Below are positions 27,894 to 44,830 of a stretch of DNA of 64,000 bases, piece after piece. The DNA is taken from NCBI RefSeq assembly GCF_020215665.1, contig NZ_CP084061.1, positions 4,307,001 to 4,371,000 of the forward strand, given 5' to 3'. Below the pieces are notes generated by a model. It was given only the letters and a program-made list of their open reading frames with translations. It ran no database searches and had not been told where the DNA came from. Position numbers and translations under genes: made by a program. Position 1 is the stretch's first letter. Every line of letters starts with the position of its first letter. This DNA is from Blautia parvula. GTDB lineage: Bacteria > Bacillota > Clostridia > Lachnospirales > Lachnospiraceae.

Positions 27894-27899
27894 CTTACA

Positions 27900-30800
27900 T
27901 TATTTCTTCTTTATTTTTCTTCCAAGGACTACCACTCCACTTAAGCTCATTCCAAGCACGATCAGCCATAAAAGCAAATTGGAGTTATCCCCAGTCTTAG
28001 GTGCATCTTTCGACGGTTTTCCACCTTCCGGAGTGCTTTCCTTTGGTTTTTCCTCATCAACCATAACAACCTTCTGCACTTCGGCGGTATCTTTTACTTC
28101 AAATACCACATCCTTTGCAATCAGATATCCTTCCGGTGCTGTCTCTTCTCGGAGCGTATATGTTCCGATTGGAAGCATCTCTATATAATGTGCCTCTTCT
28201 GTTGAAGTCCAACTTTCAATCACATTTCCTTCTTCATCCAAGATGGTCAGTTTTGCACCTGAAAGTTCCTTTCCTGCAATATCCTGTTTCGAGATCAATA
28301 CCTTTGTCACATCATCTTTCATCTCCTGTTTCTGGATTTCTGCAGTATTTTCTACTGTAAAGGTAATGCTCTCTGCAGTTACATATCCATCTGCCGGTTT
28401 TGTCTCTGTCATCGTATAGGATTTTCCAACTGTCAGCTCTTTGATCACATGAGCTTTCTCTGTAGATACCCACTCATCGATTACATTTCCGTCTTCATCT
28501 GTCACCTTCAGATGTGCCCCCGGAAGTTCTTTTCCTGTGGTAAGGTCTGTTTTCGTAAGTTCTACCGTTGTCGGCTCATTTTCAAAAACAAACTCATAGG
28601 AAACCTCGGCTTCTTCTGGTTTTCCATACTCAAAAGAGAATTCCTTTTCTTCTTTCGATGTCACAAAACCATCCGGAGCATAGATTTCTTTTACGATATA
28701 AGTTCCATCTACTGGAAGATCTGCTTTGAAAAGGATCTGTCCATTTTCATCCGTTGTTTTCTGCTCGATCAGCGTTCCGGCTTCCATCAGGACTTTTCCA
28801 TCTCTGCTTTTGATCTCTTCTTTTGTAAATAACCCGAAGATCGCACCTTCCAGCATACGGTCTGTATCCTTTGCTTTTTTAAGGACAGTTACTTTTATCT
28901 TCTGGCGGTTGTTCTGCCATTCTTCATCAAAAGTAACCACTGGCGTATCCTGATCGCGATAGGTCAGATCCACAAATCTAGGCTCTCCATCCAGTACAAA
29001 ACCATGTGCCGTTTTCACTTCCTTCACATAATATTTTCCTACCGGAAGGTCTTCCATTTTTGCGATTCCCTTTTCATCGGTTGTGATCGTGCCTACCAGC
29101 TCATCTTTCTTATAATGGTTTGCGCTTACACCATCCGCAGCCTTGATATCTTCTGCAGCATAGACTTCAAAAGTGACTTCACTTAAGTTTCCTGTGATAT
29201 ATTCAAAGAAATGTTCTACCGTTCCTTTCACATTATCCAAAAGGGTGATCTTCTCTAAAAATTCTCCCTTTTTGTTGATGATCAAAAGTCCTTTTGGTAC
29301 TTCATCCTTCATTTCCACTTTCTGTACTTCGGCAGTATCTTTGACCGTAAATGTCACATCCGTTGCTTTCAGATAACCATATGGAGCAAATTCTTCATGA
29401 AGGGTATAGGTTTCTCCGACAACCAGACGCTTGATCACATGTGGCTTATCCTTTTCAGATGTCCATTCATCGATAACATTTCCATCTTTATCCATGACCT
29501 TCAATCTTGCACCCTCCAGCTCTACGCCTGTAGTCAGATCAGACTTTGTGAATTCTGCTGTAGTTGGTTCATTTTTCTTTACAGTCTGTAAGAAAACAAG
29601 CTTTGTCTCCTGTCCCTGATACTCTGCAACAAATTCCAGCACCTCATCCGAAGAAACAAAACCTTCCGGCGCTTTTAATTCTTTTACATAGTATTCTCCA
29701 AATGGAAGATCCAGGGTGCATGTTGCCATACCGTTCTCATCGGATGTCATTTCCTGTAATAAGGTATCTGCTTTCACAAGAACTTTTCCATTTGCCTGGA
29801 TATCTTTCTTGTTATAGATGCCAAACAAAGCTCCGGATAATACCTGCCCGTTTTCTATATCCTGTTTTTCTACGGAAATTGATACCTTCTGTCTGTCATT
29901 TCCTACCATTGCTTCTGCTTCAACGACTGGTGTTTCCTGATCCTGATATGTTAATGCAACCGTTACCGGTTCTGGATTTAATACAAATCCTTCCGGTGCC
30001 TTAGTTTCCACTACATAGTATCTTCCAAGAGGAAGATCCTTTGCTACAGCTTTTCCACTCTCTCCCGTTGTGATCGTTGCCACGAGCGTATCTTTTGCAT
30101 AAAGTACGATACGGTTTCCATCTGCATCTTTCTGATGATCCGGAGTACAGATATCTTCTGCAGCTCTTACTTCAAATTCTGCTCCGGAAAGATACTGTTC
30201 CTCATAGATAAAGTCATTCTCAAAACCAGAAAGCATCTCACCTTTCTTATACACAATAAGATTTCCCTTTACCGGCTGATCTTCATAGGAAACTTCAATG
30301 ATCACATCTCCACTTACTCCATCTACTTCATAGGCAGTATCCGAATCCACGGTGATCTCTACATAGTTTTTGTTGACAACATATCCATCCGGTGCTGTCA
30401 CTTCTTCAATACGATAGTGCCCGATCTCTAAGTGTTTCGGTAAGATCAGGTATCCCTGGCTGTCCGTAAAGAAAGATTTATGGACTGTGACCGTAGGATA
30501 GGTTGTTACCTGTTCCACATATTTCTTATGATCCAGATCATAAATTTTAAATTCTGTACCGGCTACTAACACCGGTTTCTTTGTTTCATCATCTTTTTTG
30601 ATGATCTTTAACTTTGCAGAAAACTCTTTATCCAGCAGTACCTTCCAAACCTGCGGTTTATCCGGATTGTTTTCACGGATGGTAATCTCAAAATCCTCTA
30701 CCGGTTTATAATTATGAGGTGTGGTTGTTTCTCGTACAATATACGTTCCGTATGGAAGCGGAATACTGCACGCATACCCTTTCTCATCTGTGAACATTTC

Positions 30801-33125: not shown

Positions 33126-33584
33126 GTTCTTAAATCCTTCCTTTCTTCTGAATCTTATTTATCCGTTATACTTGTTCATCGTTTTCCATCATTCTTTCCT
33201 GAAAATAATCCCCTCCTTTCCTAGTCTTGTGCTATTTGGGACAGTCAGCACTTTGCTGAGATAACAGCACAAATATATGGCGGTATCTGCCTTTTCAAAC
33301 AAACACCGCCATATGATTTCTACTGTCATCCTCATTTTGATTCAGACAATTATTTTTTATTTAAGATTTAAGCGTTTTCCTGTTCTCTTCCCCGGATCCG
33401 TTCCTGTTTTAGAGTCCATATCTCCAAAACGTTTTCTCTGTCAGGACACGCACAATGCACATTCAAGGCAGGTATCACTCCGGGCAGGCTATTCTCTTTT
33501 CAAGGTACATGAAGTGTTTCTTAGAAACGTCTTCATATAACGAAAGGAAAATGGCCTATTTTACAGGGTGCTTTTTAATTTTTT
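33126..33584 (-). promoter_or_regulatory. Long structured leader of the adhesin gene
   Basis: No gene is visible in these 459 bp. Two hairpins are clear: GTGCTAT...AGCAC at about 33229-33270 and ATATGGCGGT...ACACCGCCATAT at 33275-33314. The repeat at 33531-33550 marks its upstream end. I looked for the c-di-GMP-I riboswitch signature common before adhesins in Clostridia and did not find it. Confidence 0.5.
33531..33550. repeat. CTTCATATAACGAAAGGAAA repeat, copy 2
   Basis: Identical to 17743-17762. As in the other copies, a weak CCTGTAAAA-type hairpin lies next to it on the upstream side of minus-strand transcription. Confidence 0.8.
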
Positions 33585-34205
33585 TTATTTTTTTTCTGCA
33601 TCTGCATGTTTTTTCATGACAGAAAGTGCTCTTTGCAGCATTTCACAAACACTCTGCTGTCTGATTCCAAGATAGTCCGCAATCTTCTCTTGATTCATTT
33701 CTTCAAAGTAAAATAACTGGATGATTTCTTTCTGTCTGGCAGTCAGACAACCTAAGAAATCGCGGACCACCTCTTTTTCAATATACTGGTCGAGAAGATC
33801 TGAAGCTGGATCTAGCAGTAAGATCCTGTCATCCGCATAATCGCTATACGAAACGAGTCTATGGTTTGATGCCACTTTAGCCTGATTTATTTCCATACGA
33901 TCCGTTGCTTCCATTAACAGACGAATGTACCAGTTTTCGTTGTCAAAAAATTCTTCGTTCATAATGCTTCGATCTTCCTTCACATCCATGTATTGATAAT
34001 CTTTACAGGAATGGAGTGGAAAGATGGTTTTCTTTCCGTTTTCCCTGTATAACACATACCCATTTGCGTAAACGGTAATATCACATTCCCCACTCAGAAT
34101 TTCCTTTACTACAATCTCTTCTTTTTCTAACGCCTTTTCAGAAGGGACTCTCTTTGTCATACCTGCCACTTTTACTACTTTCTTTAATTCTTTTAATGTC
34201 AACAT
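33585..34205 (-). CDS. Sigma-70 region 4-like regulator
   Basis: A 206-residue protein; ATG 34205 is chosen because GGTGG lies 7 nt upstream. The C-terminal 60 residues (FLGCLTARQKEIIQLFYFEEMNQEKIADYLGIRQQSVCEMLQRALSVMKKH) form a sigma region 4 helix-turn-helix. The N-terminal half is not a recognisable region 2; it has a beta-rich stretch (ITVYANGYVLYRENGKKTIFPL). It may be an ICE-specific sigma-like activator of the adhesin or transfer genes downstream. Such proteins recur in Clostridial ICEs. Confidence 0.75.
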   Translation of the reverse strand: MLTLKELKKVVKVAGMTKRVPSEKALEKEEIVVKEILSGECDITVYANGYVLYRENGKKTIFPLHSCKDYQYMDVKEDRSIMNEEFFDNENWYIRLLMEATDRMEINQAKVASNHRLVSYSDYADDRILLLDPASDLLDQYIEKEVVRDFLGCLTARQKEIIQLFYFEEMNQEKIADYLGIRQQSVCEMLQRALSVMKKHADAEKK

Positions 34206-34430
34206 ATGGACCACCTTTCTGCCTTACGGCTACGGGTGATCCATGAACTCTATAAAAAACTCATCACAATTAGCCACGAACTCACCCGTTTTTTTTGAAC
34301 GGGAGCCCGCAGCTCCTATGTAATTACCTCCTTCGGCTATATCATACAAAACTCCGTATCATCTCTGATTTTTGCACACGAAACTTTGCCCTCTATATAT
34401 CGAAAGGAAAAAGCCCTGTTTTACAGGTTA
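34206..34430 (-). promoter_or_regulatory. Structured leader of the sigma-like gene
   Basis: ACGGGTGA (34225-34232) pairs with TCACCCGT about 60 bp away, enclosing two near-identical segments, GAGTTCGTGG and GAGTTCATGG on the minus strand. A second stem GGAGC/GCTCC and an AAGGAGG without a following start lie upstream. The third copy of the CGAAAGGAAA repeat is at its far end. Confidence 0.5.
34396..34410. repeat. TATATCGAAAGGAAA, short third copy of the repeat
   Basis: It differs from copies 1 and 2 at one base over the shared 15 bp. The adjoining minus-strand hairpin CCTGTAAAACAGG followed by GCTTTTT is the best terminator of the three. Confidence 0.65.
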
Positions 34431-34470
34431 AAAACTCAACTTTTTTTTAAATTTTTGAGAAAACAAAAAA

Positions 34471-34548
34471 AGCCGGCAAAACAAATGCTTCCACAGACAC
34501 AGAATGAAATATCATCCTGCATTGTATCTGCAAATGTTTTGCCGGGCT
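34471..34548 (-). terminator. Terminator after the zinc-ribbon gene
   Basis: AGCCGGCAAAACA and TGTTTTGCCGGGCT pair almost perfectly across a 51-nt loop, with TTTTTTT following on the minus strand. The remaining bases between 34411 and 34649 show no convincing gene. Confidence 0.75.
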
Positions 34549-34649
34549 CTTCATGATTCCAGTCAGGTTCAGCTCCTTGACAAACTCTTGCTATCAGGTG
34601 CAGCCTTGATGGTTCCAGCCAAATCCACCGCTTATCCTGACAGATCATT

Positions 34650-34886
34650 TTATTTAGTTTCCTTTCGGGAATTCATCACTTTTTGAGAATATACCCGCAT
34701 TCTTTCTTTCAGTTTTTCGTCTTTGATGTGCAAAGGCCGTACTGAAACAATATCATCTTTTACTAAAATCTCCAAAGTGCTTCTACATTTCTTACATTCT
34801 ACTTCTGAATCGCAATGTGCGCTTTTTTCAATAAATGCTCCGCATACAGAGCAATGTACATGCCATCTGATAGCATCTGATCCCAT
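34650..34886 (-). CDS. Small zinc-ribbon protein
   Basis: A 78-residue protein starting at ATG 34886 with AAAGGAGG upstream. Cys pairs CSVCG and CKKC, with nearby His residues (WHVHC), form a probable zinc ribbon, followed by a basic helix (IKDEKLKERMRVYSQKVM). Function unknown; it may be a small DNA- or RNA-binding regulator of the ICE. Confidence 0.65.
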   Translation of the reverse strand: MGSDAIRWHVHCSVCGAFIEKSAHCDSEVECKKCRSTLEILVKDDIVSVRPLHIKDEKLKERMRVYSQKVMNSRKETK

Positions 34887-35115
34887 AGGCTTCCTCCTTT
34901 AAGCAATAATAAAAAATTCCATTTTATTACTCAACGGATCAAAGGGAAATCAAATCCGCCTTATGAGCATCATGTTGTCCATTCCGTAAGTGCCAAAGCT
35001 GCACGAACAGCATGATCATCAAATCCCAGACCTGCTTTGTTGATCTGGCGCATCCATCCTTATTCTCTCCGGATTCCCACTCACCCAGAATCCTAAGAAT
35101 TTCTGCCGATTGTAT

Positions 35116-35532
35116 TTAACAAGGTAATTCCAATTCTTCAAATATATCTCCGGATAACTCACAAAGATCCGGGATCAAAATGATCGTATCATCAATCCGT
35201 AAATGAATCGATGGATCAAAAAATTCAACGGTTCCGCAAATCGTATGATACTGGCCTGCCGGTTTCATTTCCCGGCTTTCTTTAAAATAAGTTGCCTGTA
35301 TCTTCATTCCAACAGAAACCATCTGTAGCTTCCTATCCAATCCGCATTTTTGTTCTTCGGATAACATCTTCCTTTGTTCATAAAGTATTTCCTGTTTCCG
35401 TACGATCTCTTCAAATCCCCGAAGTGCTGCAAAAGGGGCAAATTGTTTCGCTCTGTGCTGCACATCCATAGGGTATCTCTTGGAAACCGGTCTTGGAACA
35501 TATAAATATTTCTGATACGCCTCTGCCAGCAT
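35116..35532 (-). CDS. YolD-like protein
   Basis: A 138-residue protein; ATG 35532 has AGGAGG upstream. The segment MDVQHRAKQFAPFAALRGFEEIVRKQE is characteristic of YolD-like proteins, and a small beta domain follows (GTVEFFDPSIHLRIDDTIILIPDLCEL). YolD proteins are encoded with UvrX/DinB-type Y-family polymerases and are thought to be functional counterparts of UmuD. It overlaps nothing but lies 11 bp downstream of the polymerase gene, in the same transcript. Confidence 0.85.
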   Translation of the reverse strand: MLAEAYQKYLYVPRPVSKRYPMDVQHRAKQFAPFAALRGFEEIVRKQEILYEQRKMLSEEQKCGLDRKLQMVSVGMKIQATYFKESREMKPAGQYHTICGTVEFFDPSIHLRIDDTIILIPDLCELSGDIFEELELPC

Positions 35533-35543
35533 ATTTTCACCTC

Positions 35544-36815
35544 CTATGCACGATGTCCTCCAACCTGATTGTTCCTCTCTCGATAGGTGGAGCATTCCAA
35601 CAGATTGGATCCCCGCATGATCGCATTTTTTCCATAACGCTTTTTCACCTGTAATACGGCTTCCTGCAGATGTCTTTCCTTTTCTGCTTTTATGGAATCC
35701 TGAAAAAGAGTATATTGCTGATATCCTTCCGGCTTTATCTTATTTGCAATAATTTCTATTCGTCTGATTCCGGTATATGGATCTGCGATTTTTCGATAAA
35801 GTGCTTCTACTGTATCGATTATTTCCCTGGAGCGATTGGTACAATCCGGAAACCTTACGGTTCCTTTCGATGACTCCCTCTCAAAACGATGATCGTAAGC
35901 GATCCACAAGGTTACAGAATTCGTTACCAGCCCCTTTTCCACCAGATCCAGAACCAATACATCTGTCATTTCTCTTACAACAACAGCAGCTTCTTCAATT
36001 GTATAATTTCTCATCAATACCTGTCCATTGGAAAGACTATGCTCTTCTGTATGATAATTCTTGATATCACTCATTTTACAGGATTCACAGCCCCAGGCAT
36101 GATCGATCAATAGTTCTGCATCGATCCCAAACATTTTATACAGCCAGTCTTCCGATTGAATAGAGGCAAGTGCGATATCCCCCATCGTTTGGATTCCATA
36201 TCCGGCTAATTTTCTCTCTGTTCTGGAACCAATGCGCCAGAAATCACTCAATGGTTTATGTCCCCATAACTGTTCCCGGTAAGAGATCTCATCCAGCATT
36301 CCGATATGATCCTCTATATGTTTTGCCACAATATCCATTGCGATCTTTGCAAGATACAGATTGGTTCCGATTCCTGCTGTTGCTGTAATTCCGGTTTCTT
36401 CCATGACCGCATCCATCAGTTTTTGTGCCATTTCCTTCGCTGTAAGGTGATACAGGGAAAGGTATCTTGTGACATCCATAAAGCACTCATCCACACTGTA
36501 AACATGGATATCCTCTTTTGCCATATAGTTTAAATAAATCCCATAGATCCTTGCCGAATACTCCATATAGAGCTGCATCCTCGGCTTTGCTACAATATAT
36601 TCGATATGATCCGGTATCTCATGGATCCTGCAACGATTTCGGATCCCCAGCTTTTTCATAGCCGGCGTGATGGCAAGGCAAATGGTGGATACCGATCGGT
36701 CCGGATCTGCAACAACCAGATTGGTAGTAAACGGATCCAGTCCTCTTTCCACACACTCAACAGAAGCATAAAAAGATTTCAGATCAATACAGAGGAATGT
36801 TTCCTTCTGTTTCAA
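35544..36815 (-). CDS. Y-family DNA polymerase (DinB/UvrX-like)
   Basis: A 423-residue error-prone polymerase. TTG 36815 is the likely start because GGGAGGTGA lies about 10 nt upstream; in-frame ATGs at 36863 and 36857 lack a site. The first catalytic Asp is in LCIDLKSFYASVECVERGLDP and the acidic pair in HVYSVDECFMDVTRY. The thumb and little-finger regions follow (DFWRIGSRTERKLAGYGIQTMGDIA). It is closest to the UvrX/UmuC group found on phages and plasmids of Firmicutes. It probably gives damage tolerance or mutagenesis. A consensus promoter with operator-like repeats controls it. Confidence 0.9.
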   Translation of the reverse strand: MKQKETFLCIDLKSFYASVECVERGLDPFTTNLVVADPDRSVSTICLAITPAMKKLGIRNRCRIHEIPDHIEYIVAKPRMQLYMEYSARIYGIYLNYMAKEDIHVYSVDECFMDVTRYLSLYHLTAKEMAQKLMDAVMEETGITATAGIGTNLYLAKIAMDIVAKHIEDHIGMLDEISYREQLWGHKPLSDFWRIGSRTERKLAGYGIQTMGDIALASIQSEDWLYKMFGIDAELLIDHAWGCESCKMSDIKNYHTEEHSLSNGQVLMRNYTIEEAAVVVREMTDVLVLDLVEKGLVTNSVTLWIAYDHRFERESSKGTVRFPDCTNRSREIIDTVEALYRKIADPYTGIRRIEIIANKIKPEGYQQYTLFQDSIKAEKERHLQEAVLQVKKRYGKNAIMRGSNLLECSTYRERNNQVGGHRA

Positions 36816-36914
36816 ATCAATCACCTCCCATAAGTTGCCTATCTTTCTCTTTCCCATAAGCAATCAGATCTCATCCCAACTCGTTTTCACACGATAGAGA
36901 TCGTGCCAAAACAG

Positions 36915-37030
36915 GCAATTTTCAGTAAATCCATTGACAAAAAAGGAAATATCATTTATATTATAGGCAAGTAGTTGCCGTTCTGTTGTGATTCACATTA
37001 TAGGCAATCATTCGCCTCTTGTCAAGAGGC
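36915..37030. promoter_or_regulatory. Divergent promoters with AGGCAA operators
   Basis: The minus-strand promoter is perfect: TTGACA (37020-37025), 17 bp, TATAAT (36997-37002). The plus-strand promoter is TTGACA (36936-36941), 17 bp, TATTAT (36959-36964). Palindromes AGGCAAGTAGTTGCCG (36965-36980) and AGGCAATCATTCGCCT (37002-37017), a third AGGCAA at 36915, and GCCTCTTGTCAAGAGGC (37014-37030) overlap both. They are the likely binding sites of the HTH protein encoded at 37121, able to shut down both directions at once. Confidence 0.75.
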
Positions 37031-37120
37031 AACTTGTTGATTATGGGAAATTTATTTCCTATACCGTTTCAGCATCATACACAGGGATCCTGAAACGCCA
37101 ATTAGAAAGTAGGTATTTTT

Positions 37121-37531
37121 ATGACATTCGGTGAAAAAGTGAAAAATTTAAGAAAGAACAAAGGACTCAGCCAAACCCAATTAGCCGATGCTGTCGGTGT
37201 CTCCCTTCGGACTGTTCGGGGATGGGAAATTGAAGGCCGTTACCCAAAGAAGCACGATCTTTACCAGAAACTTGCAGACATTTTAAGCTGTGATATCTCC
37301 TATCTCATGACAGAAGAAGAGACTTTTATCACAGAAGCATCTGAACAATTTGGAAACCGCGGAGCAAAACAGGCTCAGCAGATCTTAGAACAAGCCGCTG
37401 CAATGTTCGCCGGCGGGGAACTTTCTGATGAAGACAAAACGGCCTTTATGGATGAAATCCAGTCTTTATATCTGGATTCCAAGAGACGTGCAAAGAAATT
37501 TACACCAAAGAAATATTTAGATGCCAAATAG
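37121..37531 (+). CDS. XRE-family HTH repressor
   Basis: A 136-residue regulator starting at ATG 37121, about 9 nt after AGTAGGT. Residues 1-65 are a classic Cro/CI helix-turn-helix (KNLRKNKGLSQTQLADAVGVSLRTVRGWEIEGRYPKKHDL). The C-terminal region (about 70-136) is helical and may dimerise. Paired with an ImmA-type protease gene downstream, it resembles ImmR/ImmA switches of ICEBs1 and phages, in which DNA damage or a signal leads to repressor cleavage. Targets probably include its own and the polymerase promoter. Confidence 0.9.
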   Translation: MTFGEKVKNLRKNKGLSQTQLADAVGVSLRTVRGWEIEGRYPKKHDLYQKLADILSCDISYLMTEEETFITEASEQFGNRGAKQAQQILEQAAAMFAGGELSDEDKTAFMDEIQSLYLDSKRRAKKFTPKKYLDAK

Positions 37532-37622
37532 ATGGGGTGATTATGGGACAGCCTATAGGATATAGTTTTATTGTCAGAAGTACATTACCACTTCTGTTTG
37601 ATTCATACACGAGGTGATATAT

Positions 37623-38138
37623 TTGGGGAATTCATATATTTACAACAAAGTAGAAAAACTTGTAAAAAAGTTCAAGACCAGGGATCCTTTTGAAATACTG
37701 GAAGAAATGAATGTGATCGTTGGAGAAACAGACCGCTACGAAAAATTAAAAGGATACTGTTTCATGAGCTGCCAAACCATTTATGTTATGGTAAGCAGTT
37801 TTCTCTCTGAGGAAGAGAAAAAGATTGTTGCCGCCCACGAACTCGGTCACATCATTCTGCATCGTTCTCAGCTCAAAATGGCGCCAATGAAAGATGATGT
37901 CTTATATAACATGAGGGATAATACGGAATACGAAGCGAACCTTTTCGCTGCAGATCTTATCCTGGATGATAAAGAAATCGCAGACCTGTCAAAGAACGAA
38001 GACCTGAACTATTTCGGGCTCTGTAGCTGCTTAAACTCCAGTCCGGAACTCATGAGCTTCAAGTTATACAGTCTGATCAAGCGTGGTCAGAACTACAATA
38101 TGCCGTTGGAAATACAGAGCAACTTCCTGGCCAAATAA
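37623..38138 (+). CDS. ImmA/IrrE-type metallopeptidase
   Basis: A 171-residue protein; TTG 37623 (LGNSYIYNKVEKL) fits the GAGGTGAT site, while an in-frame GTG at 37614 lies within it. The zinc motif HELGHIILH and a downstream Glu-rich segment (NTEYEANLFAADLIL) are the ImmA/IrrE (M78) signature. It probably cleaves the HTH repressor encoded just upstream and so relieves repression of the polymerase and perhaps of transfer. About 90 bp separate the two genes. Confidence 0.9.
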   Translation: MGNSYIYNKVEKLVKKFKTRDPFEILEEMNVIVGETDRYEKLKGYCFMSCQTIYVMVSSFLSEEEKKIVAAHELGHIILHRSQLKMAPMKDDVLYNMRDNTEYEANLFAADLILDDKEIADLSKNEDLNYFGLCSCLNSSPELMSFKLYSLIKRGQNYNMPLEIQSNFLAK

Positions 38139-38143
38139 AATTT

Positions 38144-38172
38144 GCCCGTTCCATACAACTGAACGGGCTTTT
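38144..38172. terminator. Terminator after the immA-like gene
   Basis: GCCCGTTC and GAACGGGC form a perfect 8-bp stem followed by TTTT on the plus strand. It lies between the immA-like stop and the convergent ribbon-helix-helix gene. Confidence 0.85.
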
Positions 38173-38197
38173 CTTATATCCATATATGAAGATTCTT

Positions 38198-38359
38198 TTA
38201 TTTCAGTTCGCCATGCTTATTTTCAAATTCCATGATCGCCTGACGTATTAAATATAACACTTCTCCATTGATTGAACGCCCTTCAAATTCTGCCAGGCTT
38301 TTCAGTTTTTTATGCGTTTCAGCATCAATCCGTAATCCTAAATGCTTCTCTTTCTCCAT
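38198..38359 (-). CDS. Small ribbon-helix-helix (Arc/CopG-like) DNA-binding protein
   Basis: A 53-residue protein, MEKEKHLGLRIDAETHKKL at its N-terminus and ending KHGELK. ATG 38359 follows GGAGAG. The beta strand (HLGLRID) followed by two helices (AETHKKLKSLAEFEG and SINGEVLYLIRQAIMEFE) is the Arc-type ribbon-helix-helix fold. Proteins like this bind tandem repeats and often autoregulate; repeats of AAGTACA/AAGTTCA lie directly upstream. It might regulate copy number, transfer or the plus-strand gene at 38492. Confidence 0.8.
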   Translation of the reverse strand: MEKEKHLGLRIDAETHKKLKSLAEFEGRSINGEVLYLIRQAIMEFENKHGELK

Positions 38360-38380
38360 GATTATTCTCTCCATCTCTAT

Positions 38381-38463
38381 AAGTACATATTAAGTTCATA
38401 TTTCAAGTTCATTTTAAGTACAAATAATGGTAGAATGTTTTAAACGGACTTATTTTAAGTACA
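38381..38463. repeat. AAGT(A/T)CA repeat array
   Basis: Five copies of AAGTACA or AAGTTCA begin at 38381, 38392, 38405, 38416 and 38457. The first four are spaced 11, 13 and 11 bp, about one helical turn. They occupy the divergent gap between the ribbon-helix-helix gene and the gene at 38492 and are its probable operator. Confidence 0.7.
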
Positions 38464-38491
38464 CTATATTTTTTCACGGAGGAATTCGATT

Positions 38492-39208
38492 ATGCATGAA
38501 AAAAGAAAAAAATATTATCATATCAGGAAAGATTTATTCTGGTGCACCATCCTATTAGCTGTATCCTTTCTCATCGGTTATGCTATCCATCAACATCACG
38601 GTATTTTTCTAACACATTCCCTGAAAGCAGACGCCCCAAAAGAACGGATAGAAATAACCTTTGACGATCTGCAATCAAGCCTGAATGATATCTCTACATG
38701 CTATTTATGTGGAAGCTCTGATTATAGTATGATGGACTATTATCGAAAATTTGATACGGTTGGACTGATTTCTCTTAATGATTGGCACGTCTTAGATTTC
38801 CAACTGAAAGCATATGATGAAAGCGGAAATGAAATATTAAATAAGACCAGTTCAAATATGCTTTTTGGAAACACAGGCGAAATCACCTATTCCTCTCATG
38901 GAGATGTTTCCAGAGGAATGGCTGAGATAGATATCACGTTACCGGAAAACTATAAATTGAACAAAAGAAATCTAACGGATCATCTCTGCCAAAGTTGCCT
39001 TGATAAAGTTGCTGCTTCTTTAGAATATTGGAAATATGAAGATGAAAAGAAAGAACCGATCCCGCTGTGTTTGGTCGATTTTAAAACTCTTGATATTTAT
39101 TCTTTACAGGATTATTACCGATCCGTTTTCATCCGAGATTATTATGTAGAAATGGGCTTTGAAGAAATTTCTGTAGAAGTAAAAACTTTTTATCTGCCGA
39201 AGAGATAA
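38492..39208 (+). CDS. Hypothetical membrane-anchored protein
   Basis: A 238-residue protein from ATG 38492 with ACGGAGGA upstream. One N-terminal helix (LFWCTILLAVSFLIGYAIH) anchors a domain outside the membrane. Two CxxC pairs (CYLCGSSD and CQSCLDK) may bind zinc or form disulphides. No family recognised. Its promoter region holds the repeat array, so it may be controlled by the ribbon-helix-helix protein. Confidence 0.65.
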   Translation: MHEKRKKYYHIRKDLFWCTILLAVSFLIGYAIHQHHGIFLTHSLKADAPKERIEITFDDLQSSLNDISTCYLCGSSDYSMMDYYRKFDTVGLISLNDWHVLDFQLKAYDESGNEILNKTSSNMLFGNTGEITYSSHGDVSRGMAEIDITLPENYKLNKRNLTDHLCQSCLDKVAASLEYWKYEDEKKEPIPLCLVDFKTLDIYSLQDYYRSVFIRDYYVEMGFEEISVEVKTFYLPKR

Positions 39209-39261
39209 TAATTATGATATACTGAAAAAAATGACAAATAAGAATTTGAGGTGATGAAACT

Positions 39262-39789
39262 ATGTCTGAAATACAAATTGCATGGTTAGAATTGATGACA
39301 GTTGGAGGTCTTGGTGTAATATTAGTTCTGCTAGGAGTTACTTTCAATATCATTGTAAAAAGACAAAATAAATTGTGTACAAAAAAGACAGACGGTATTA
39401 TTAAACAATATGGGTTTCCTGGAAATGGAAGAGTGTACCCAATCGTTGAGTACTTTGTGAATGGAACTTGTTATAAAGCAAAGAAAAAATTTCGAGGAAT
39501 TAAAACAACGCAACTATCAGGAGTACCTGTACCGATGAAACCAGAAGTCTATGAAGATGAAAAAGGATGGCTACATGTAAAAACTGGAGCTATTGCAAAT
39601 TTGCATCAACTTGCGGAGCAGTTGTGGCCTATCAACAGTAAGATGACAGTTTATTATAATCCAAACAATCCTAAAAAGTGTTATATTGATAGACCAATTT
39701 CAAAAAGATTTACTTCCATGATGTTTATCATAATGGGGACAGTAACAATACTCTTGAGTGTACTGGTATTCTTTTTGATGCAGTTATAA
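39262..39789 (+). CDS. DUF3592-like membrane protein
   Basis: A 175-residue protein starting at ATG 39262 with GAGGTGA upstream. Helices lie near both ends (VGGLGVILVLLGVTFNIIV and FTSMMFIIMGTVTILLSVLVFFL), and between them is a beta domain ending in MTVYYNPNNPKKCYI, the hallmark of DUF3592 proteins. Function unknown. Confidence 0.75.
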   Translation: MSEIQIAWLELMTVGGLGVILVLLGVTFNIIVKRQNKLCTKKTDGIIKQYGFPGNGRVYPIVEYFVNGTCYKAKKKFRGIKTTQLSGVPVPMKPEVYEDEKGWLHVKTGAIANLHQLAEQLWPINSKMTVYYNPNNPKKCYIDRPISKRFTSMMFIIMGTVTILLSVLVFFLMQL

Positions 39790-39841
39790 ATTGCAAAAGA
39801 TAATTGCTAATCAGACAAATCCCAGTTTGGACTTTTCTTAT

Positions 39842-39872
39842 AGAGCCTTTCCATGAAGGAGAGGCTCTTTTC
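39842..39872. terminator. Terminator between convergent genes
   Basis: AGAGCCTTTCC and AGGAGAGGCTCT pair, then TTTTC follows on the plus strand. It ends the DUF3592 transcript. Confidence 0.75.
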
Positions 39873-39916
39873 ATCTGAAATTACTAAGATGACTATTTCA
39901 ACTATCATCATCTTTT

Positions 39917-40213
39917 TTAACCTAAAATCAATGCACATATTCTTTCTCTAAATAAGTCCATTACAGCATCTATAAATTCTCCGGCAAATACAATAAACTT
40001 CAAAACACCGCCCATACAAGCTAAAAAAGCTGCCTGTATCCAGTCTTGATAACAGAGCACTGTTCCTATAAACAAAACTACAATTCCAAATCCCAATATC
40101 TTTTTTGCGATTGCCACCATATGTACTAGTAGTTTCACTCCGACACCTATGATTGAAACAATAAACCACAATGGAATCAATAACACTTTTCCTGACACTT
40201 TTAAAATCCCCAT
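39917..40213 (-). CDS. CD1845-like membrane protein
   Basis: A 98-residue protein; ATG 40213 (MGILKVSGKVLL) has AGGAGG 6 nt upstream, inside the end of the preceding gene. It has three hydrophobic segments. The sequence fits the CD1845 family, small membrane proteins encoded after the replication initiator in Clostridial ICEs, with unknown function. It overlaps the initiator gene's reading frame only with its ribosome binding site, so translation is coupled. Confidence 0.75.
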   Translation of the reverse strand: MGILKVSGKVLLIPLWFIVSIIGVGVKLLVHMVAIAKKILGFGIVVLFIGTVLCYQDWIQAAFLACMGGVLKFIVFAGEFIDAVMDLFRERICALILG

Positions 40214-40227
40214 ATCCATCCTCCTCG

Positions 40228-41226
40228 CTATCTTGCCAGCCATGGCATATCATGATTTACTTCTGCCCGGTAATACCCACTTATCGTTGAAGGAGCATTG
40301 AACAATGCTGCAAGTAAATATTTCTTGATATTCTTGATTTTACTCGTATTTCCTTCCAGACAATGCAGCACATACTCTACATGCGAATAATCCAGCTTCA
40401 TGAATTTTCCTCTTACCAAAGCTCCTGAATACCAGTTGCTTGCAATCAATACTCTATCACTCCTACACATGACAGTCTCTACAATCAGATCCACTATTTC
40501 ATCAATCTGATTTTTGTCATGAGGATGACTCACAAGTAGGGCATCATACTCCAGGTTTTCTTTGATCAGAGATTGATACGCATGTAATGTTTCCATCTCA
40601 TCCTCTTCGGATCCTATCCCATCTGCAGATACGATAGGATTAGATTTATTCTCACTAAGATTAGTATTGTTAATATTAGTATTATTAGAGTTTGAAATGT
40701 AAACTTCTTGAAGTTTATTTTCGGGACTTCTTGAAGTTTGTTTTTGGGACTTCTTGAAGTTTGAAATGTAAACTTCTTCTGTCTCTTCTTCCTCTACTGA
40801 AGTTTGATTTGTAAACTTCACCATCTTTGGTTTTTCTTTTTTCTGTTCCTCACATTCCTCCTGAATAAATGATTTTACATAGATGATCGTAACCTTTCCA
40901 AATCCCTGCCTACGTTTTTCAATCAAACCTATCCCTTTTTCATCATCCAGCTCCTGAAGAGATTTCACCGCTTTATTTCTGCCACAATTCAATAATTCCA
41001 TGATATCTTCAATGGAAAAATAGATATATGCCCGATTTTCTTCATCAAACCACTGATTCTTAATAGATAAAGACATTCTGTCCAACATCAAACCGTATAA
41101 GATCTTCGCATCACTGGAAAGATCCTTGAAACAGTCATTGGTAAATAAAGCTTTGGGTATTCTGTAAAAACTAAACTGGTCTGCTTCTGTTCCATAAAAA
41201 TATTTAAAATTCATTTTTTTATCCAT
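40228..41226 (-). CDS. RepA-like replication initiator (RepA_N plus DUF6017-like)
   Basis: A 332-residue protein; ATG 41226 has GGGAGGA upstream. Residues about 1-110 match RepA_N: FSFYRIPKALFTNDCFKDLSSDAKILYGLMLDRMSLS followed by a winged-helix region (YFSIEDIMELLNCGRNKAVKSLQEL). The middle is low-complexity with a repeated EVYISN, encoded by iteron-like DNA. The C-terminal part (about 225-332) is the DUF6017-type region. RepA_N proteins start theta replication of low-copy plasmids, and ICEs with them can replicate while excised. Upstream par genes support that. Confidence 0.85.
   Translation of the reverse strand: MDKKMNFKYFYGTEADQFSFYRIPKALFTNDCFKDLSSDAKILYGLMLDRMSLSIKNQWFDEENRAYIYFSIEDIMELLNCGRNKAVKSLQELDDEKGIGLIEKRRQGFGKVTIIYVKSFIQEECEEQKKEKPKMVKFTNQTSVEEEETEEVYISNFKKSQKQTSRSPENKLQEVYISNSNNTNINNTNLSENKSNPIVSADGIGSEEDEMETLHAYQSLIKENLEYDALLVSHPHDKNQIDEIVDLIVETVMCRSDRVLIASNWYSGALVRGKFMKLDYSHVEYVLHCLEGNTSKIKNIKKYLLAALFNAPSTISGYYRAEVNHDMPWLAR
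40690..40820. repeat. Iteron-like repeats inside repA, candidate replication origin
   Basis: GTTTGAAATGTAAACTTCTT occurs exactly at 40690-40709 and 40759-40778, with a variant GTTTGATTTGTAAACTTC at 40802-40819. Between them CTTCTTGAAGTTT occurs three times (40704, 40727 and 40750). AACTTCTTGAAGTT is a perfect palindrome. RepA_N plasmids are known to carry their origin iterons inside the rep gene, so this is the best origin candidate. Confidence 0.7.
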
Positions 41227-41293
41227 GTATCTTCCTCCCTTCCTTTCTCTCATAGAAGTCCTTTTTTTAAACTTCTGTATCTCTTCTTTCTTC

Positions 41294-41316
41294 GGGTTGT
41301 CTTATTTTGACAACCC
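41294..41316 (-). terminator. Hairpin between repA and the first parB
   Basis: GGGTTGTC and GACAACCC form an 8-bp stem directly after the parB stop. No strong T-run follows on the minus strand, so it may only attenuate. Confidence 0.5.
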
Positions 41317-42222
41317 TTATTTCTGTTCTCTTTTCCATTGTTCCAGTAATGTCTCAATCACCTTTTCCATATCCGTTTCCGAATAGTCTTCCGGAAAATA
41401 TTTTGTAAGCTTCTTTCCTGATAACACCACTTTTCGTTCCGGTGCTTTTACCACTATACAACTATTAAAAATTGAGATCATAAATCCCTGGTTCACTGGT
41501 CCTTCTTCCAACTGTTTTCTCAAAGCTGTAATCTGCTTTGGTTTAATAAATCCTGTATCCCGGATATACTCATAAATCCATTTCTGCATTTCCTTATCAA
41601 TGTAGGAAATATCAACGGCAATGGTAAAATTCAATTTCTTTGCATCTACCATATCTAATAATTCCGGGATTAATTCTGTAAGTCGAATGTAACGCTGAAC
41701 ATTACGAGCACTCTCTCCTACTTGTTCCCCTAACTCTTCTCTTGATTTCTTACCCAACTTGTGGCCATTATGACCACAAGTTAAATCAGCTCTTTTTCCC
41801 TGTCTCTTCATCGCATCCAGTTTCATCTTATAAGCAAATGCTTTTTCACTCGGAAGTAACTCTTCTCGTTGAATATTGGCATCTACCATGGCGATTACTG
41901 CATCATCATCTGACAGCTCTCTGACAATTGCAGGAATTGTTTCCAAGCCAGCTCTAATAGCCGCGTACATTCTTCGATGACCTGATATCATCTCATATCC
42001 ATCTTCACCATCGGATCGTAACAAAACTGGTGTCAGTATCCCTTTTGCCTTTACACTCTCCACCAAGTCTGTCATCTTTTCGTCATCCAATACCTTAAAT
42101 GGATGATCCTTAAAAGCATGAATTTTACTGATATCAATCTCCATTGCCGATTCTTCATTGACTACTCCCAGCAATTCATCAATGCTTGTCAATTTGATTT
42201 TTTCTGCGCTTCTACTTTTCAT
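41317..42222 (-). CDS. parB: ParB/Spo0J-family partition protein, copy 1
   Basis: A 301-residue protein from ATG 42222 with AGGAGG upstream. The ParB N-terminal domain (about 30-120) shows the CTPase-type motifs SGHRRMYAAIRAG and NIQREELLPSEKAFAYKM. A helix-turn-helix follows (SREELGEQVGESARNVQRYIRL). It shares much of its layout with the protein at 43013-43888. Its start overlaps the parA stop by 11 nt. With ParA it should distribute the excised element at cell division. Confidence 0.9.
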   Translation of the reverse strand: MKSRSAEKIKLTSIDELLGVVNEESAMEIDISKIHAFKDHPFKVLDDEKMTDLVESVKAKGILTPVLLRSDGEDGYEMISGHRRMYAAIRAGLETIPAIVRELSDDDAVIAMVDANIQREELLPSEKAFAYKMKLDAMKRQGKRADLTCGHNGHKLGKKSREELGEQVGESARNVQRYIRLTELIPELLDMVDAKKLNFTIAVDISYIDKEMQKWIYEYIRDTGFIKPKQITALRKQLEEGPVNQGFMISIFNSCIVVKAPERKVVLSGKKLTKYFPEDYSETDMEKVIETLLEQWKREQK

Positions 42223-42997
42223 TTTCCAAAACCTCCTGTGTCAGATTTTCATAAGCCATAGATACTTTTCCCTTTGGACAATGACAATAAATACTTTTTC
42301 CTTCCGCACTTGCTTCAGCTACCTTAACTGATAGTGGAATGACATTTTCAAAGATAGAAATCTTAGATCCATAAGTTTCTCTCACTCTGGAAGCAATATC
42401 TTTGGCGTAATTAGTACGAAAATCCACCATTGTCAAAAGAATTCCCTGTATCGTCAGCTTTCGGTTCAATCTCTTCTTTACCATAGAAATAGTCCTGATC
42501 AACTGTTGAAGTCCTTTAACCGGCAGATATGCAGCTTGTACAGGTATCAAAACCGTATCAGAAGCTACTAAAGCATTGATGGTCATCATTCCCAAGCTCG
42601 GCATACAATCAATCAAAATATAATCGTATCGTGATCGCATCGTATCAATATATTCCTTCATGATCAGCTCCCTGCTCATTACATTACTCATAGTTACTTC
42701 CAAGGCTGATAACTCAATATTGGCCGGTAGGAGATCCACTTGTTCCTCATGATGTAAAATGCCTTCTTCCTCAGCAATTTCCTCGTCATTGATAATATTC
42801 ATCATAATAGTTGCAAGAGTTGTTCCAATATCATCCGGTTCTACATATCCAAGACTTGCAGTTAAGCTTCCCTGTGGATCCGCATCGATCAATAACACTT
42901 TTTTTCCTTGTCTTACCAACCCAACTCCAAGATTTAAAGTCGTTGTACTTTTTGCAACTCCGCCTTTCTGGTTTACTACTGAAATAACTTTACACAT
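42212..42997 (-). CDS. parA: ParA partition ATPase
   Basis: A 261-residue ATPase; ATG 42997 (MCKVISVVNQ) has GGAGGA 7 nt upstream. The deviant Walker A motif KGGVAKSTTTLNLG, the DADPQGSLTASLG box and the second Asp in YILIDCMPSLGMMTINAL are intact. It has no N-terminal HTH, as in ParA/Soj of type Ib or chromosomal kind. It sits between two parB-type genes. Confidence 0.95.
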   Translation of the reverse strand: MCKVISVVNQKGGVAKSTTTLNLGVGLVRQGKKVLLIDADPQGSLTASLGYVEPDDIGTTLATIMMNIINDEEIAEEEGILHHEEQVDLLPANIELSALEVTMSNVMSRELIMKEYIDTMRSRYDYILIDCMPSLGMMTINALVASDTVLIPVQAAYLPVKGLQQLIRTISMVKKRLNRKLTIQGILLTMVDFRTNYAKDIASRVRETYGSKISIFENVIPLSVKVAEASAEGKSIYCHCPKGKVSMAYENLTQEVLENEK

Positions 42998-43012
42998 ACT
43001 GTTTTCCTCCAT

Positions 43013-43888
43013 TTATTTCTCCCAATTTTCATTCTGCCAGATTTTCAATAATGCTATAATTTCTCGTTTCATCATTGCCGGTGTATATCTGCTTGGAAAA
43101 TATTTGTGAAGCTGCTCATTCGTAAAGGCAACTCTCGTAATCTCACCTTTTTTTATCTCACTCATAATTTCCTGCATCTTCTCTAATGTAAGTTGGTTTT
43201 CTTTGCTCAATTTTCTAATCCGCTGTGCCTGTGATAAAGACGGAACAGCCTGAGCATAATCCATTGCTTCTAATAGTTGTTTTTGTTCTTCTTCTTTTAA
43301 TGCTGAAATTTCAACTGCCGGATTAAAAGATATCAATTCATCATCTAATTTCTGTAAGAACTCAGGTATTAGTTTCGTCAATGAAATATATCTTTGTACC
43401 TGCTTTGGACTATCTCCACATTCTTCACTGATAATCTCTACTGTTCTCTTTCTTTTTGTTTTGTGGTCAATTTGACCTTTTTTCCTACCTGATTTTCTTT
43501 TCAGCACATCATTTTTCATTTTGTAAGCAAAAGCCTTTTCACTGAAACTGATTTTTTCTCTGTGCAGGTTAGAATCCACCATATTCAAAATAGATTCATC
43601 TTCTGTCATCACACGGATAATTACTGGTACTTTTCGATACCCCAGTAACTCAGCTGCATGTTTTCTTCTGTGACCGGATATAATCTCATAGACTCCATCT
43701 GGCACAGGCCTGACAATCAATGGATTGAGAATTCCGTACTTCTCAATACTTTCTTTTAGCAAATGCATCTCTTTATCATCTTTCACTTGAAAAGGATGAT
43801 TTTTAAAAGAACAGAGTCTTTCAATCTCAATTTCAATAATCTTCTCATCTTCATTCTTCGGAATAAATTCTTTCGTTACTTCCGTCAT
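43013..43888 (-). CDS. ParB/Spo0J-family partition protein, copy 2
   Basis: A 291-residue protein; ATG 43888 is 5 nt from AGGAGG, and an ATG 3 nt earlier is also possible. It has the same domain order as the downstream copy: ISGHRRKHAAELLG, NLHREKISFSEKAFAYKMKNDVL and an HTH near VEIISEECGDSPKQVQRYISL. It has diverged considerably from copy 1, so the two probably bind different sites or work at different stages. It heads the par-rep operon. Confidence 0.9.
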   Translation of the reverse strand: MTEVTKEFIPKNEDEKIIEIEIERLCSFKNHPFQVKDDKEMHLLKESIEKYGILNPLIVRPVPDGVYEIISGHRRKHAAELLGYRKVPVIIRVMTEDESILNMVDSNLHREKISFSEKAFAYKMKNDVLKRKSGRKKGQIDHKTKRKRTVEIISEECGDSPKQVQRYISLTKLIPEFLQKLDDELISFNPAVEISALKEEEQKQLLEAMDYAQAVPSLSQAQRIRKLSKENQLTLEKMQEIMSEIKKGEITRVAFTNEQLHKYFPSRYTPAMMKREIIALLKIWQNENWEK

Positions 43889-43955
43889 CATTTCCTCCTT
43901 CTTCGGTCAGACAAAAAAAGCCCGTCTGGATCCGATTATTTTTGAAATCAGTTCC

Positions 43956-44197
43956 AAACGAGCATCTCGTTTTCTATTAGCTATAGCTAATATATTTCTC
44001 TATTGTTTCAGCTAATATATGTTTGCAAATTATATTCTGCAAAGAATTTTTCCTTTGATCTACTGTATTTTACATTCCTAAATCAATGGTGACAACAGAT
44101 ACTTCCCCAAATGTTAGCAATATCTCTGATACAGTCTATTTGCAAAACTCTATTTTTTATTAGCTGCCAGCTAACAATTATTTCATTGTATTAGCTG
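43956..44197. repeat. Cluster of TTAGCT palindromes, possible centromere or origin
   Basis: ATTAGCTATAGCTAAT (43976-43991) is a perfect 16-bp palindrome. TTAGCTGCCAGCTAA (44160-44174) is another, and single arms occur at 44010 and 44190. AAACGAGCATCTCGTTT (43956-43972) is a separate palindrome. The region is AT-rich, non-coding and upstream of the parB-parA-parB operon, where a parS-type site or operator is expected. No gene is visible from 43892 to 44294. Confidence 0.55.
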
Positions 44198-44294
44198 AAA
44201 ATCATCCTCAAAGCAATAAAATCATGCATTTTTTTTATCAAAAAAGCGCCCCATTATTTGCATTTCTGCTAATAATCGAACGCTTTTGACTGGC

Positions 44295-44366
44295 CGTCTC
44301 GTATAGGAATCGAACCTATAATTTAGTCTTAGGAGGACCATGTTATATCCATTTAACTAACGAGAC
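44295..44366 (-). tRNA. tRNA-Arg(CCU), carried by the ICE
   Basis: The minus strand folds into a complete cloverleaf: acceptor GTCTCGT with ACGAGAC, D stem GTTA with TAAC, anticodon stem TGGTC with GACTA around loop CTCCTAA (anticodon CCU), a 4-nt variable loop, and T arm ATAGG-TTCGAAT-CCTAT. The discriminator is G and no CCA is encoded. It reads rare AGG codons. It is AT-rich for a tRNA and lies on the ICE side of the putative attachment site, beside a second tRNA-Arg(CCU) that is only half present. Confidence 0.9.
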
Positions 44367-44429
44367 AAAATGCCATTTTCCCTTGAAAACACGCGATTTT
44401 CCGGCTTTTTGGTAATGGCAACCTTTATT

Positions 44430-44460
44430 TAATTATCAGCTTTTTTCAAGCTGTTAATTA
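44430..44460. repeat. Inverted repeat near the ICE right end
   Basis: TAATTATCAGCTT pairs with AAGCTGTTAATTA (one mismatch) around TTTTC. It lies between the two tRNA sequences, about 130 bp inside the putative crossover. It could be an arm site for the integrase or a terminator. Confidence 0.4.
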
Positions 44461-44589
44461 CTATTATTTTTCATGTTGGTGACATCAAAGCACTCACCTA
44501 TTAGGGTAACACCTTCGTGTCAATTTTTACTCTTCTTAACTAGATTTGAACCCAAAAGTTTTTTCAGGAAGTGATAACCTTGGTTCCTC

Positions 44590-44629
44590 CTTAGGAGGCG
44601 GTCGCTCTATCCAGCTGAGCTACAGAAAC
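44590..44629 (-). other. 5' half of host tRNA-Arg(CCU): putative ICE attachment site
   Basis: The minus strand starts GTTTCTGTAGCTCAGCTGG and continues through a normal D arm, GAGC, the 5' anticodon stem ACCGC and the loop CTCCTAA, then G. After that the expected GCGGT of the stem is absent. GAGGAACCAAGG follows and no normal T arm or acceptor end can be paired. CCTCCTAAG at the break is also present in the ICE-borne tRNA. This is what remains when an element inserts at the anticodon loop. The matching 3' half should lie beyond the left end of the ICE. Confidence 0.65.
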
Positions 44630-44830
44630 ATAATATTTATGATATTTCCTTACGACCCTCTAATTTTATACTACCCAAAAGAAAAAGTCAAGATAGCATC
44701 CCTGTTTTTTTCTGGTTTCTTACGAAGATTTATAAAAATTACTGCCAGATATTGAACAGGATATTTGGGGAATATCGACAAAGTTTTCTTAAAGTTTATT
44801 AATATACTATTCATTGCAACGACGATTTGC

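What the first reader, a model, noticed from the sequence alone, without database searches (positions are those of the whole stretch)
44295..44629. ICE-borne tRNA-Arg(CCU) next to a split host tRNA-Arg(CCU)
The complete tRNA at 44295-44366 and the half tRNA at 44590-44629 have the same anticodon. The half gene has a normal 5' part but loses its 3' anticodon stem, T arm and acceptor. The ICE seems to have inserted in the host gene and brought its own copy, which would keep AGG decoding alive in the host and could make loss of the ICE costly if excision were imprecise. Replacement tRNAs on integrative elements are known in principle; this arrangement should be verified.
Basis: partly seen in the sequence, partly recalled or inferred. 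Interest (0 to 1): 0.75.

Follow-up and report, generated by a model that had tools for sequence, protein, structure and literature searches.

The report
Mobile element swaps host tRNA gene
A large mobile DNA element has cut a bacterium's only found gene for one arginine tRNA in two and carries a complete copy beside the break; related elements show the same layout, and in one case a carried copy has itself been the landing site of another element.

Summary
Confirmed and extended. On the minus strand, an intact tRNA-Arg(CCU) (44295-44366) follows a 5' half (44590-44629). The 3' half is 59.84 kb away, outside the window; both ends share CTCCTAAG. The joined halves equal the 74-nt gene that is intact at the same locus in congener G162. 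No other tRNA-Arg(CCU) was found. The insert is ICE-like: tyrosine integrase, T4SS genes, RepA_N, ParAB. The logic is that of tRNA-dependent lysogeny, known in actinobacteriophages (PMC10865867). New here: an ICE-like carrier; a replacement within 300 bp of the junction, mostly without a promoter-like site; and renewal of the landing site. In 29 of 125 family genomes with a CCU-type 5' part such parts stand in tandem, against 1 of 121 for UCU. Of 27 distinct fetched arrays with broken halves, 26 end in an intact gene and one is cut by a contig end. In G046 an element sits inside another's carried tRNA, which is intact in G149. Expression, need for the tRNA and integrase activity are inferred.

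The parts
44295..44366 (-). Intact replacement tRNA-Arg(CCU) carried by the element (72 nt, no encoded CCA)
   Evidence: ARAGORN; Rfam RF00005 61.8 bits; stems paired in alignment A1
44590..44629 (-). 5' half of the broken host tRNA-Arg(CCU); ends with the shared core
   Evidence: joined with the distant 3' half it equals the intact gene of G162
44590..44597 (-). 8-bp core CTCCTAAG at the element's right junction (anticodon loop plus one base); the other copy is at genome 4291750-4291757, outside the window
44367..44589 (-). Right-end segment of the element between junction and carried tRNA: promoter score not above shuffles, no terminator hit; copies 97.8% and 100% identical stand in tandem in G150, one 97.8% copy in G151
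44663..44691 (-). Host promoter-like site (TTGACT, 17 nt, TAAAAT), left upstream of the 5' half; the same site stands before the intact gene in G162
44243..44287 (-). Hairpin with a U-rich 3' side downstream of the carried tRNA, likely terminator
   Evidence: fold of 44222-44300, -24.5 kcal/mol, z -4.3; the simple terminator scan did not list it
1..44589 (.). Part of the ICE-like element that lies in the window (whole element about 59.84 kb, genome 4291757-4351597)
43013..43891 (-). ParB-like protein, first listed ORF of 100 aa or more after the carried tRNA
   Evidence: PF02195
42212..43012 (-). ParA-like ATPase
   Evidence: PF13614
41317..42222 (-). Second ParB-like protein
   Evidence: PF02195
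40228..41253 (-). RepA_N/DUF6017 replication initiator-like protein
   Evidence: PF06970, PF19481
25261..27078 (-). VirD4/TraG-type coupling protein
   Evidence: PF02534
23908..24780 (-). TrbL/VirB6-like T4SS protein
   Evidence: PF19478
21096..23513 (-). TraG P-loop domain ATPase (VirB4-type by inference)
   Evidence: PF19044

Best explanation
A 59.84-kb ICE-like element entered the anticodon loop of the host's single found tRNA-Arg(CCU) gene by tyrosine-integrase recombination over a short core. Unlike ordinary tRNA-targeting islands it does not rebuild the gene from a 3' fragment; it carries a complete tRNA-Arg(CCU) of different sequence about 220 bp inside its right end, in the same orientation. 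SHOWN by sequence: both halves, the core, the empty site in two congeners, an integrase gene, the absence of another detected CCU tRNA, and recurrence of the layout in related elements. INFERRED: the integrase does the reaction; the carried tRNA is transcribed by read-through from the host tRNA promoter left upstream of the dead 5' half and takes over the CCU role; precise excision would restore the host gene. Because the carried gene has the same loop CTCCTAA, it is itself a possible target: an element inside another's carried tRNA is shown by comparison of G046 with G149. Repetition gives stacks of dead 5' halves ending in one intact gene.
For: Halves, core, distance. Empty site: (74 of 74 nt). 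Only CCU gene found. Integrase PF00589; its four PDB sequence hits are integrases, among them 3nkh and 6emz. Relatives of the integrase at 27 loci; 21 of 27 hold a 3' half of a tRNA-Arg(CCU) in the fetched DNA, 20 of these downstream of the integrase match. Tandem 5' parts within 400 bp on one strand: 29 of 125 genomes with a match (150 searched), against 1 of 121 for UCU (Fisher p 1e-8; G005). Of 43 broken 5' halves in the transcribed genomes, 41 are followed by another 5' part at 82-299 bp and 2 lie at contig ends. 27 distinct arrays with halves in fetched loci: 26 end in an intact gene, 1 is cut by a contig end. Anticodon-stem match 5/5 in 12 of 12 genomes with one 5' and one 3' half; 0 of 100,000 re-pairings do so. 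37 intact genes: 777 of 777 cells paired, 18 of 21 pairs with changes on both sides (part of the pairing was a selection rule, see report). Reuse of a carried tRNA. Promoters: 29 of 52 upstream segments score at least 10/12, 5 of 38 right-end segments do.
Against: No expression, excision or transfer data. tRNA-Arg(UCU) is present and may read AGG, so the CCU gene may not be essential. Five of 38 right-end segments do carry a good promoter-like site, so promoter capture is not universal. Half counts do not always balance: G046 has 2 five-prime and 3 three-prime halves, G138 2 and 3, G117 1 and 2, G027 1 and 2, while others have more 5' than 3' halves; G102 shows two 3' halves and no 5' half; G155 has 3' halves not all matched, one on the other strand. 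Deletion between repeats or draft gaps would explain this but was not shown. Some genomes keep two intact CCU genes (G149, G138, G077, G132), so 'exactly one' is not a rule for the whole genome. In the 9.2-kb G117 element the profile of the integrase family found no relative; a PF00589 protein there is distant.
Confidence: 0.87

Rival explanations
1. Ordinary tRNA-targeting ICE that rebuilds its target from a fragment in attP; the nearby tRNA is unrelated cargo.
For: Islands in tRNA genes usually rebuild the tRNA (PMC4383910, abstract and passages). A T-loop-like motif GTTCRA lies in the first 70 nt of 15 of 37 right ends, 1.95 expected from shuffles, perhaps a relic of such a fragment (some of these ends are related to each other).
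Against: The junction does not rebuild the tRNA. In 26 of 27 distinct arrays the half is followed by an intact tRNA of the same anticodon.
Confidence: 0.03
2. The carried tRNA is translational cargo (codon supply for the element), and its match with the broken gene is coincidence.
For: AGG is used in element genes, 6.3 per 1000 codons in 15 ORFs.
Against: AGG is used more in 9 sampled host-side ORFs (9.0 per 1000). The carried gene has the broken isotype and lies at 82-299 bp (core to core) in 41 of 43 halves, the other 2 being at contig ends. ARAGORN finds no other tRNA in the window or in the 40 kb before it.
Confidence: 0.06
3. The 5' half arrays are tandem tRNA duplications followed by decay, not junctions of mobile elements.
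For: Several genomes have more 5' than 3' halves; the search pattern itself ends at the anticodon loop, so breaks elsewhere were not looked for.
Against: Matching 3' halves lie 9-183 kb away where they are on the same contig, with 5/5 stem pairing; integrase relatives at element ends; empty sites.
Confidence: 0.02
4. The split gene still makes a tRNA by trans-splicing or through an intron, so the carried copy is redundant.
For: Group I introns in tRNA-Arg(CCU) anticodon loops are known in other bacteria (recalled, from no call).
Against: At E up to 1 Rfam finds in 43800-45000 the intact tRNA and two matches far below their cut-offs, no intron family (the left side was not scanned); halves 59.8 kb apart.
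Confidence: 0.02

Closest known systems
tRNA-dependent lysogeny of actinobacteriophages (Fionnbharth, LeBron, Gaia and others; Guerrero-Bustamante and Hatfull 2024, PMC10865867; abstract, passages, and sections 10 and 11 read)
   Same: Tyrosine integrase; short core (8-17 bp in its table) that does not rebuild the host tRNA; element carries a tRNA of the broken isotype
   Different: There temperate phages, here an ICE-like element; core in the anticodon loop; tRNA within 300 bp of the junction; mostly no promoter-like site of its own (the Fionnbharth tRNA has a tested promoter); carried tRNA can be the next target and stacks form, which I did not see in the parts read
Lactobacillus johnsonii prophage Lj965 (as cited in the discussion of PMC10865867)
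   Same: Reported there as not rebuilding the tRNA and coding for a cognate tRNA
   Different: Prophage; primary paper not seen
tRNA-site genomic islands as in Islander (PMC4383910, abstract and passages)
   Same: Tyrosine integrase, tRNA gene target, anticodon-loop crossover class, tandem arrays known
   Different: Those rebuild the tRNA from a fragment in attP; the method searches for fragments of each tRNA gene, so a replacement of different sequence may be missed (inference)
Integrases 6emz and 3nkh of the PDB (that 6emz is the Tn1549 integrase is recalled)
   Same: Sequence similarity in the catalytic part (E 0.0005 and 2e-6)
   Different: Target site and carried tRNA; similarity covers about 125-150 residues

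Membership tests
tRNA-dependent integration (logic of tRNA-dependent lysogeny) | Tyrosine-family integrase | tested here: met
   PF00589, E 8.9e-17; PDB integrases
tRNA-dependent integration (logic of tRNA-dependent lysogeny) | Short common core, host tRNA not rebuilt | tested here: met
   8-bp CTCCTAAG at both ends, halves 59,840 bp apart
tRNA-dependent integration (logic of tRNA-dependent lysogeny) | Element codes for the same isotype as the broken tRNA | tested here: met
   tRNA-Arg(cct)
tRNA-dependent integration (logic of tRNA-dependent lysogeny) | Broken gene is the only one of its isotype in the host | tested here: met
   58 tRNAs reported, no other cct
tRNA-dependent integration (logic of tRNA-dependent lysogeny) | Carried tRNA is needed for survival of integrants | not testable with these tools
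   needs a deletion experiment
tRNA-dependent lysogeny in the strict sense | Element is a temperate phage | tested here: not met
   T4SS, RepA_N and ParAB genes; no phage structural family among the proteins scanned; not every ORF was scanned
Integrative and conjugative element | Integrase, att sites, T4SS proteins and coupling protein | tested here: met
   completeness of the T4SS not assessed
Integrative and conjugative element | Own relaxase | tested here: inconclusive
   A MobA-type relaxase lies at L046:12258-13814, but may belong to a smaller element nested there
Integrative and conjugative element | Excision and transfer | not testable with these tools
   none
Islander-type island that rebuilds its tRNA | Junction restores a functional tRNA | tested here: not met
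tRNA with intron | Intron RNA family beside the half | tested here: not met
   right side only; halves 59.8 kb apart

The most novel reading that the evidence does not exclude
Self-renewing landing pad: in this bacterial family the cell's CCU tRNA has become a gene owned and handed on by conjugative elements. Each arriving element destroys the current tRNA-Arg(CCU) in its anticodon loop, takes over the host tRNA promoter by read-through, supplies the new tRNA and with it the next landing site, so that elements can nest one in another while a working gene always remains, and the dead 5' halves record the order of arrival.
Probability: 0.5. Interest if true: 0.82.

Novelty: new variant of a known kind. 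Interest (0 to 1): 0.72.

Why it matters
If true, the tRNA-replacement strategy described for actinobacteriophages is also used by conjugative-type elements, and often in one bacterial family. It predicts that a translation gene is repeatedly replaced by horizontally moving copies, that the number and order of past integrations can be read from dead 5' halves, and that island finders built on reconstruction of the target can miss such elements. It would also explain how several large elements share one tRNA site without ending its function, and it makes promoter capture and renewal of the site directly testable.

Tried and rejected
Intron in the anticodon loop: no Rfam intron family at the right side. 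Rebuilding of the tRNA at the junction: not there. A second host tRNA-Arg(CCU): none found. Integrase near the left ends: of 19 regions (L156-L174) 6 hold a relative of the window's integrase, 4 at the left end (L161, L162, L167, L168) and 2 in fact near the carried tRNA (L171, L174); of 9 right-end regions 7 hold one; the G117 element has a distant PF00589 protein. The idea that the T-loop-like motif in right ends is half of a hybrid tRNA was dropped because I saw no matching acceptor strand in the window's copy (my reading). Lone 5' parts without a 3' part, possible counter-examples, were fetched on checking: G021, G042, G058, G063 and G093 all break off 45-71 bases after the core at a contig end, and G026 C36 is no tRNA; G010, G016 and G113 lie at the very end of contigs. 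The listings are cut, so some single-copy genomes were not examined.

Errors of my own, mended: the first classifier labelled 72-nt element-type tRNAs as halves; one search corrects it, but the T-loop count still rests on the segments. In one search the G005 entry was counted as a half; it is the intact gene of an array with two halves, and the G026 entry is no tRNA; hence 43 halves, not 45.

Papers: searches gave tRNA-dependent lysogeny as the only close precedent; no listing named a replacement tRNA in an ICE or stacking of this kind; the library lacks most subscription journals. Also seen as background: passages of PMC8371274 and the abstract of PMC9897764.

Full report
Observation. The window has one tRNA by ARAGORN, tRNA-Arg(cct), on the minus strand at 44291-44367; Rfam places it at 44295-44366 with 61.8 bits. 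About 220 bp upstream in its own direction lies the 5' half, 44629..44590, which reads as a normal tRNA up to the anticodon loop CTCCTAA and then turns into foreign sequence. The window is G000:C1:4307001-4371000 of a 6.25-Mb one-contig genome.

The other half. I fetched 40 kb before the window and searched for the core. From genome 4291757 downwards, minus strand, stands CTCCTAAG followed by the 3' side of the anticodon stem, a T arm and the acceptor strand. The two cores are 59,840 bp apart. The empty site exists in nature: a search of 20 genomes of the genus with the host 5' flank and half gave two full-length matches, G162 (85% identity) and G163 (81%); the others matched only tRNA-like parts, one nothing. 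Both have an intact tRNA-Arg(cct) there, of the same sequence, and the 74-nt gene of G162 equals the joined halves of the window's genome. The same promoter-like site stands before it.

Only copy found. The Rfam tRNA search of the genome gave 58 matches (150 of 202 candidates scored). ARAGORN on the loci that cover them shows Arg anticodons tct, acg, ccg and one cct, that of the element. Pattern searches for CCU-type parts found the two 5' parts and two 3' parts described here and otherwise only matches without tRNA shape. AGG is a common codon (9.0 per 1000 in nine host-side ORFs, 6.3 in fifteen element ORFs). A tRNA-Arg(UCU) is present, so how essential the CCU gene is remains open.

The element. 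Between the cores lie a tyrosine integrase (L046:8085-9518, genome 4295085-4296518, PF00589, E 8.9e-17) with an HTH protein beside it that also matches excisionase-like families, T4SS and coupling proteins, RepA_N, ParA and two ParB proteins, antirestriction and surface proteins. The left and right ends share a repeat (TGACACGAAGGT.TT.CCC, E 0.004), which could be integrase arm sites (inference).

Recurrence. The integrase has relatives at 27 loci in genome contigs. In 21 of 27 the fetched DNA holds a 3' half of a tRNA-Arg(CCU) behind CTCCTAA, in 20 of these downstream of the integrase match; 2 of the others show only an intact gene and 4 nothing of this kind. In L083 and L084 the 3' half differs by one or two bases from that of the tRNA carried by the window's element (my comparison of the sequences), so there the element sits in a tRNA of element type. 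In 150 genomes of the window's family, 125 have a CCU-type 5' part, 31 have two or more, and 29 have them in tandem within 400 bp on one strand (G005). The same test for tRNA-Arg(UCU) gave 1 of 121 (G065, 287 bp); Fisher p 1e-8. For 30 of the 31 genomes I transcribed all listed places (G005 was cut from the listing): 33 intact genes, 43 broken 5' halves, 29 3' halves and one false match, G026 C36. Of the 43 halves 41 are followed by another 5' part at 82-299 bp (core to core) and 2 lie at contig ends (G109, G126). G005 adds two halves, followed at 104 and 123 bp. By fetched loci: 27 distinct arrays with halves; 26 end in an intact gene and one, L081, is cut by a contig end (33 and 1 array records before redundancy was removed). 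Of the 30 loci, 16 hold at least one broken half. Because multi-part genomes were chosen for transcription, I looked afterwards for lone halves: five with no 3' part all stop 45-71 bases after the core at a contig end.

Pairing. In 12 of 12 genomes with one 5' and one 3' half the anticodon stems match 5/5; 17% of cross pairs do, and 0 of 100,000 random re-pairings reach 12. In 21 of 21 genomes with both kinds some pair matches 5/5. Counts do not always balance: G046, G138, G117 and G027 have one 3' half more than 5' halves; several have fewer; G102 has two 3' halves and no 5' half; G155 has a 3' half on the other strand far away. Deletion between repeated halves, or draft gaps, may explain this; it is not shown. 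Four of the transcribed genomes keep two intact CCU genes.

Reuse of the carried tRNA. G046 and G149 hold two elements, B and C, with identical end sequences. In G149 C stands in tandem before B, and B's carried tRNA is intact. In G046 C lies inside B's carried tRNA: the halves, 103 kb apart, join to the same 99 bases that are continuous in G149. So a carried tRNA has served as target. In G150 (Blautia) two right ends 97.8% and 100% identical to the window's stand in tandem, each before a further copy of the tRNA, with an 85% identical piece of 107 bases upstream of the first half.

Structure of the intact genes. In 37 of 39 distinct intact tRNA-Arg(CCU) genes, host and carried, all 777 cells of the cloverleaf are paired and 18 of 21 pairs show changes on both sides; none of 500 shuffles reaches these values. 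Caveat: genes were accepted as intact only with at least 6 of 7 acceptor pairs and 4 of 5 anticodon-stem pairs, so the percentage is partly a selection rule; the D and T stems and the compensatory changes are not.

Expression. Upstream of the first 5' part of an array, 29 of 52 distinct segments hold a promoter-like site of at least 10/12; between a broken half and the next tRNA, 5 of 38 do (p 5e-5). For the window, the host site TTGACT-17-TAAAAT lies before the half, and the right end scores no better than its shuffles and has no terminator hit; a stable hairpin follows the carried tRNA. Read-through from the host promoter is the simplest reading for most; a minority may have a promoter of their own.

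Layouts. The integrase lies at the left end (window; G072, G059 and two elements of G138: L161, L162, L167, L168), at the right end pointing towards the carried tRNA (G035, G133, G077, G138 first element, G046, G149 twice, G027), or near the right end pointing away (G155, L174).

Comparison. tRNA-dependent lysogeny (PMC10865867; abstract, passages, sections 10 and 11 read) has the same logic, tested there by mutation: short core, no rebuilding, same-isotype tRNA needed. Here the carrier is ICE-like, the tRNA is beside the junction, mostly without a promoter-like site, and can be the next target. I did not see stacking or ICEs in the parts read. Islander-type islands rebuild the tRNA (PMC4383910, abstract and passages). 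The principle is therefore known, and the variant is new as far as searches show.

Noticed in passing
L046:12258-18730 (genome 4299258-4305730): MobA-type relaxase, thymidylate synthase complementing protein and an EF-G-like protein (probably a ribosome protection protein) in one stretch inside the element; may be a smaller mobilizable element (compare IME_Rho_tet, PMC12904643, passages seen).
   Followed up: partly
window 1527-3537: IS91-like Y2 transposase next to a tyrosine recombinase, probably an insertion within the element.
   Followed up: no
window 43974-44280 and left end L046:4758-5357: Repeated TATTAGCTGA-type motifs near both ends of the element; possible integrase arm sites or ParB sites.
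   Followed up: partly
right ends of elements, e.g. window 44546-44551: T-loop-like GTTCRA within 70 nt after the core in 15 of 37 right ends (1.95 expected from shuffles), at 6-11 or 39-51 nt; perhaps relics of a former 3' fragment.
   Followed up: partly
L137 (G028:C13:26500-27600): Same genus as the window: a changed 5' half (D arm altered) 114 bp before an intact tRNA-Arg(CCU), so dead halves seem to erode.
   Followed up: no
L121 (G155:C1:1307988): An extra 3' half on the other strand, more than 2.6 Mb from the array, in the genome of Lachnospiraceae bacterium GAM79; possible rearrangement or second site.
   Followed up: no
G182, G201, G218, G274, G266: Tandem CCU-type 5' parts also in five of 114 genomes of other families of the class (two of one genus); 3' parts not checked, so they may be plain duplicates.
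   Followed up: no
G136:C137:75 and 322: A UCU-like 5' part 247 bp before a CCU 5' part; may be a decayed half with a changed anticodon.
   Followed up: no
window 27900-33125: 1741-aa surface protein with a thioester domain and eleven SpaA-type stretches on the element.
   Followed up: no
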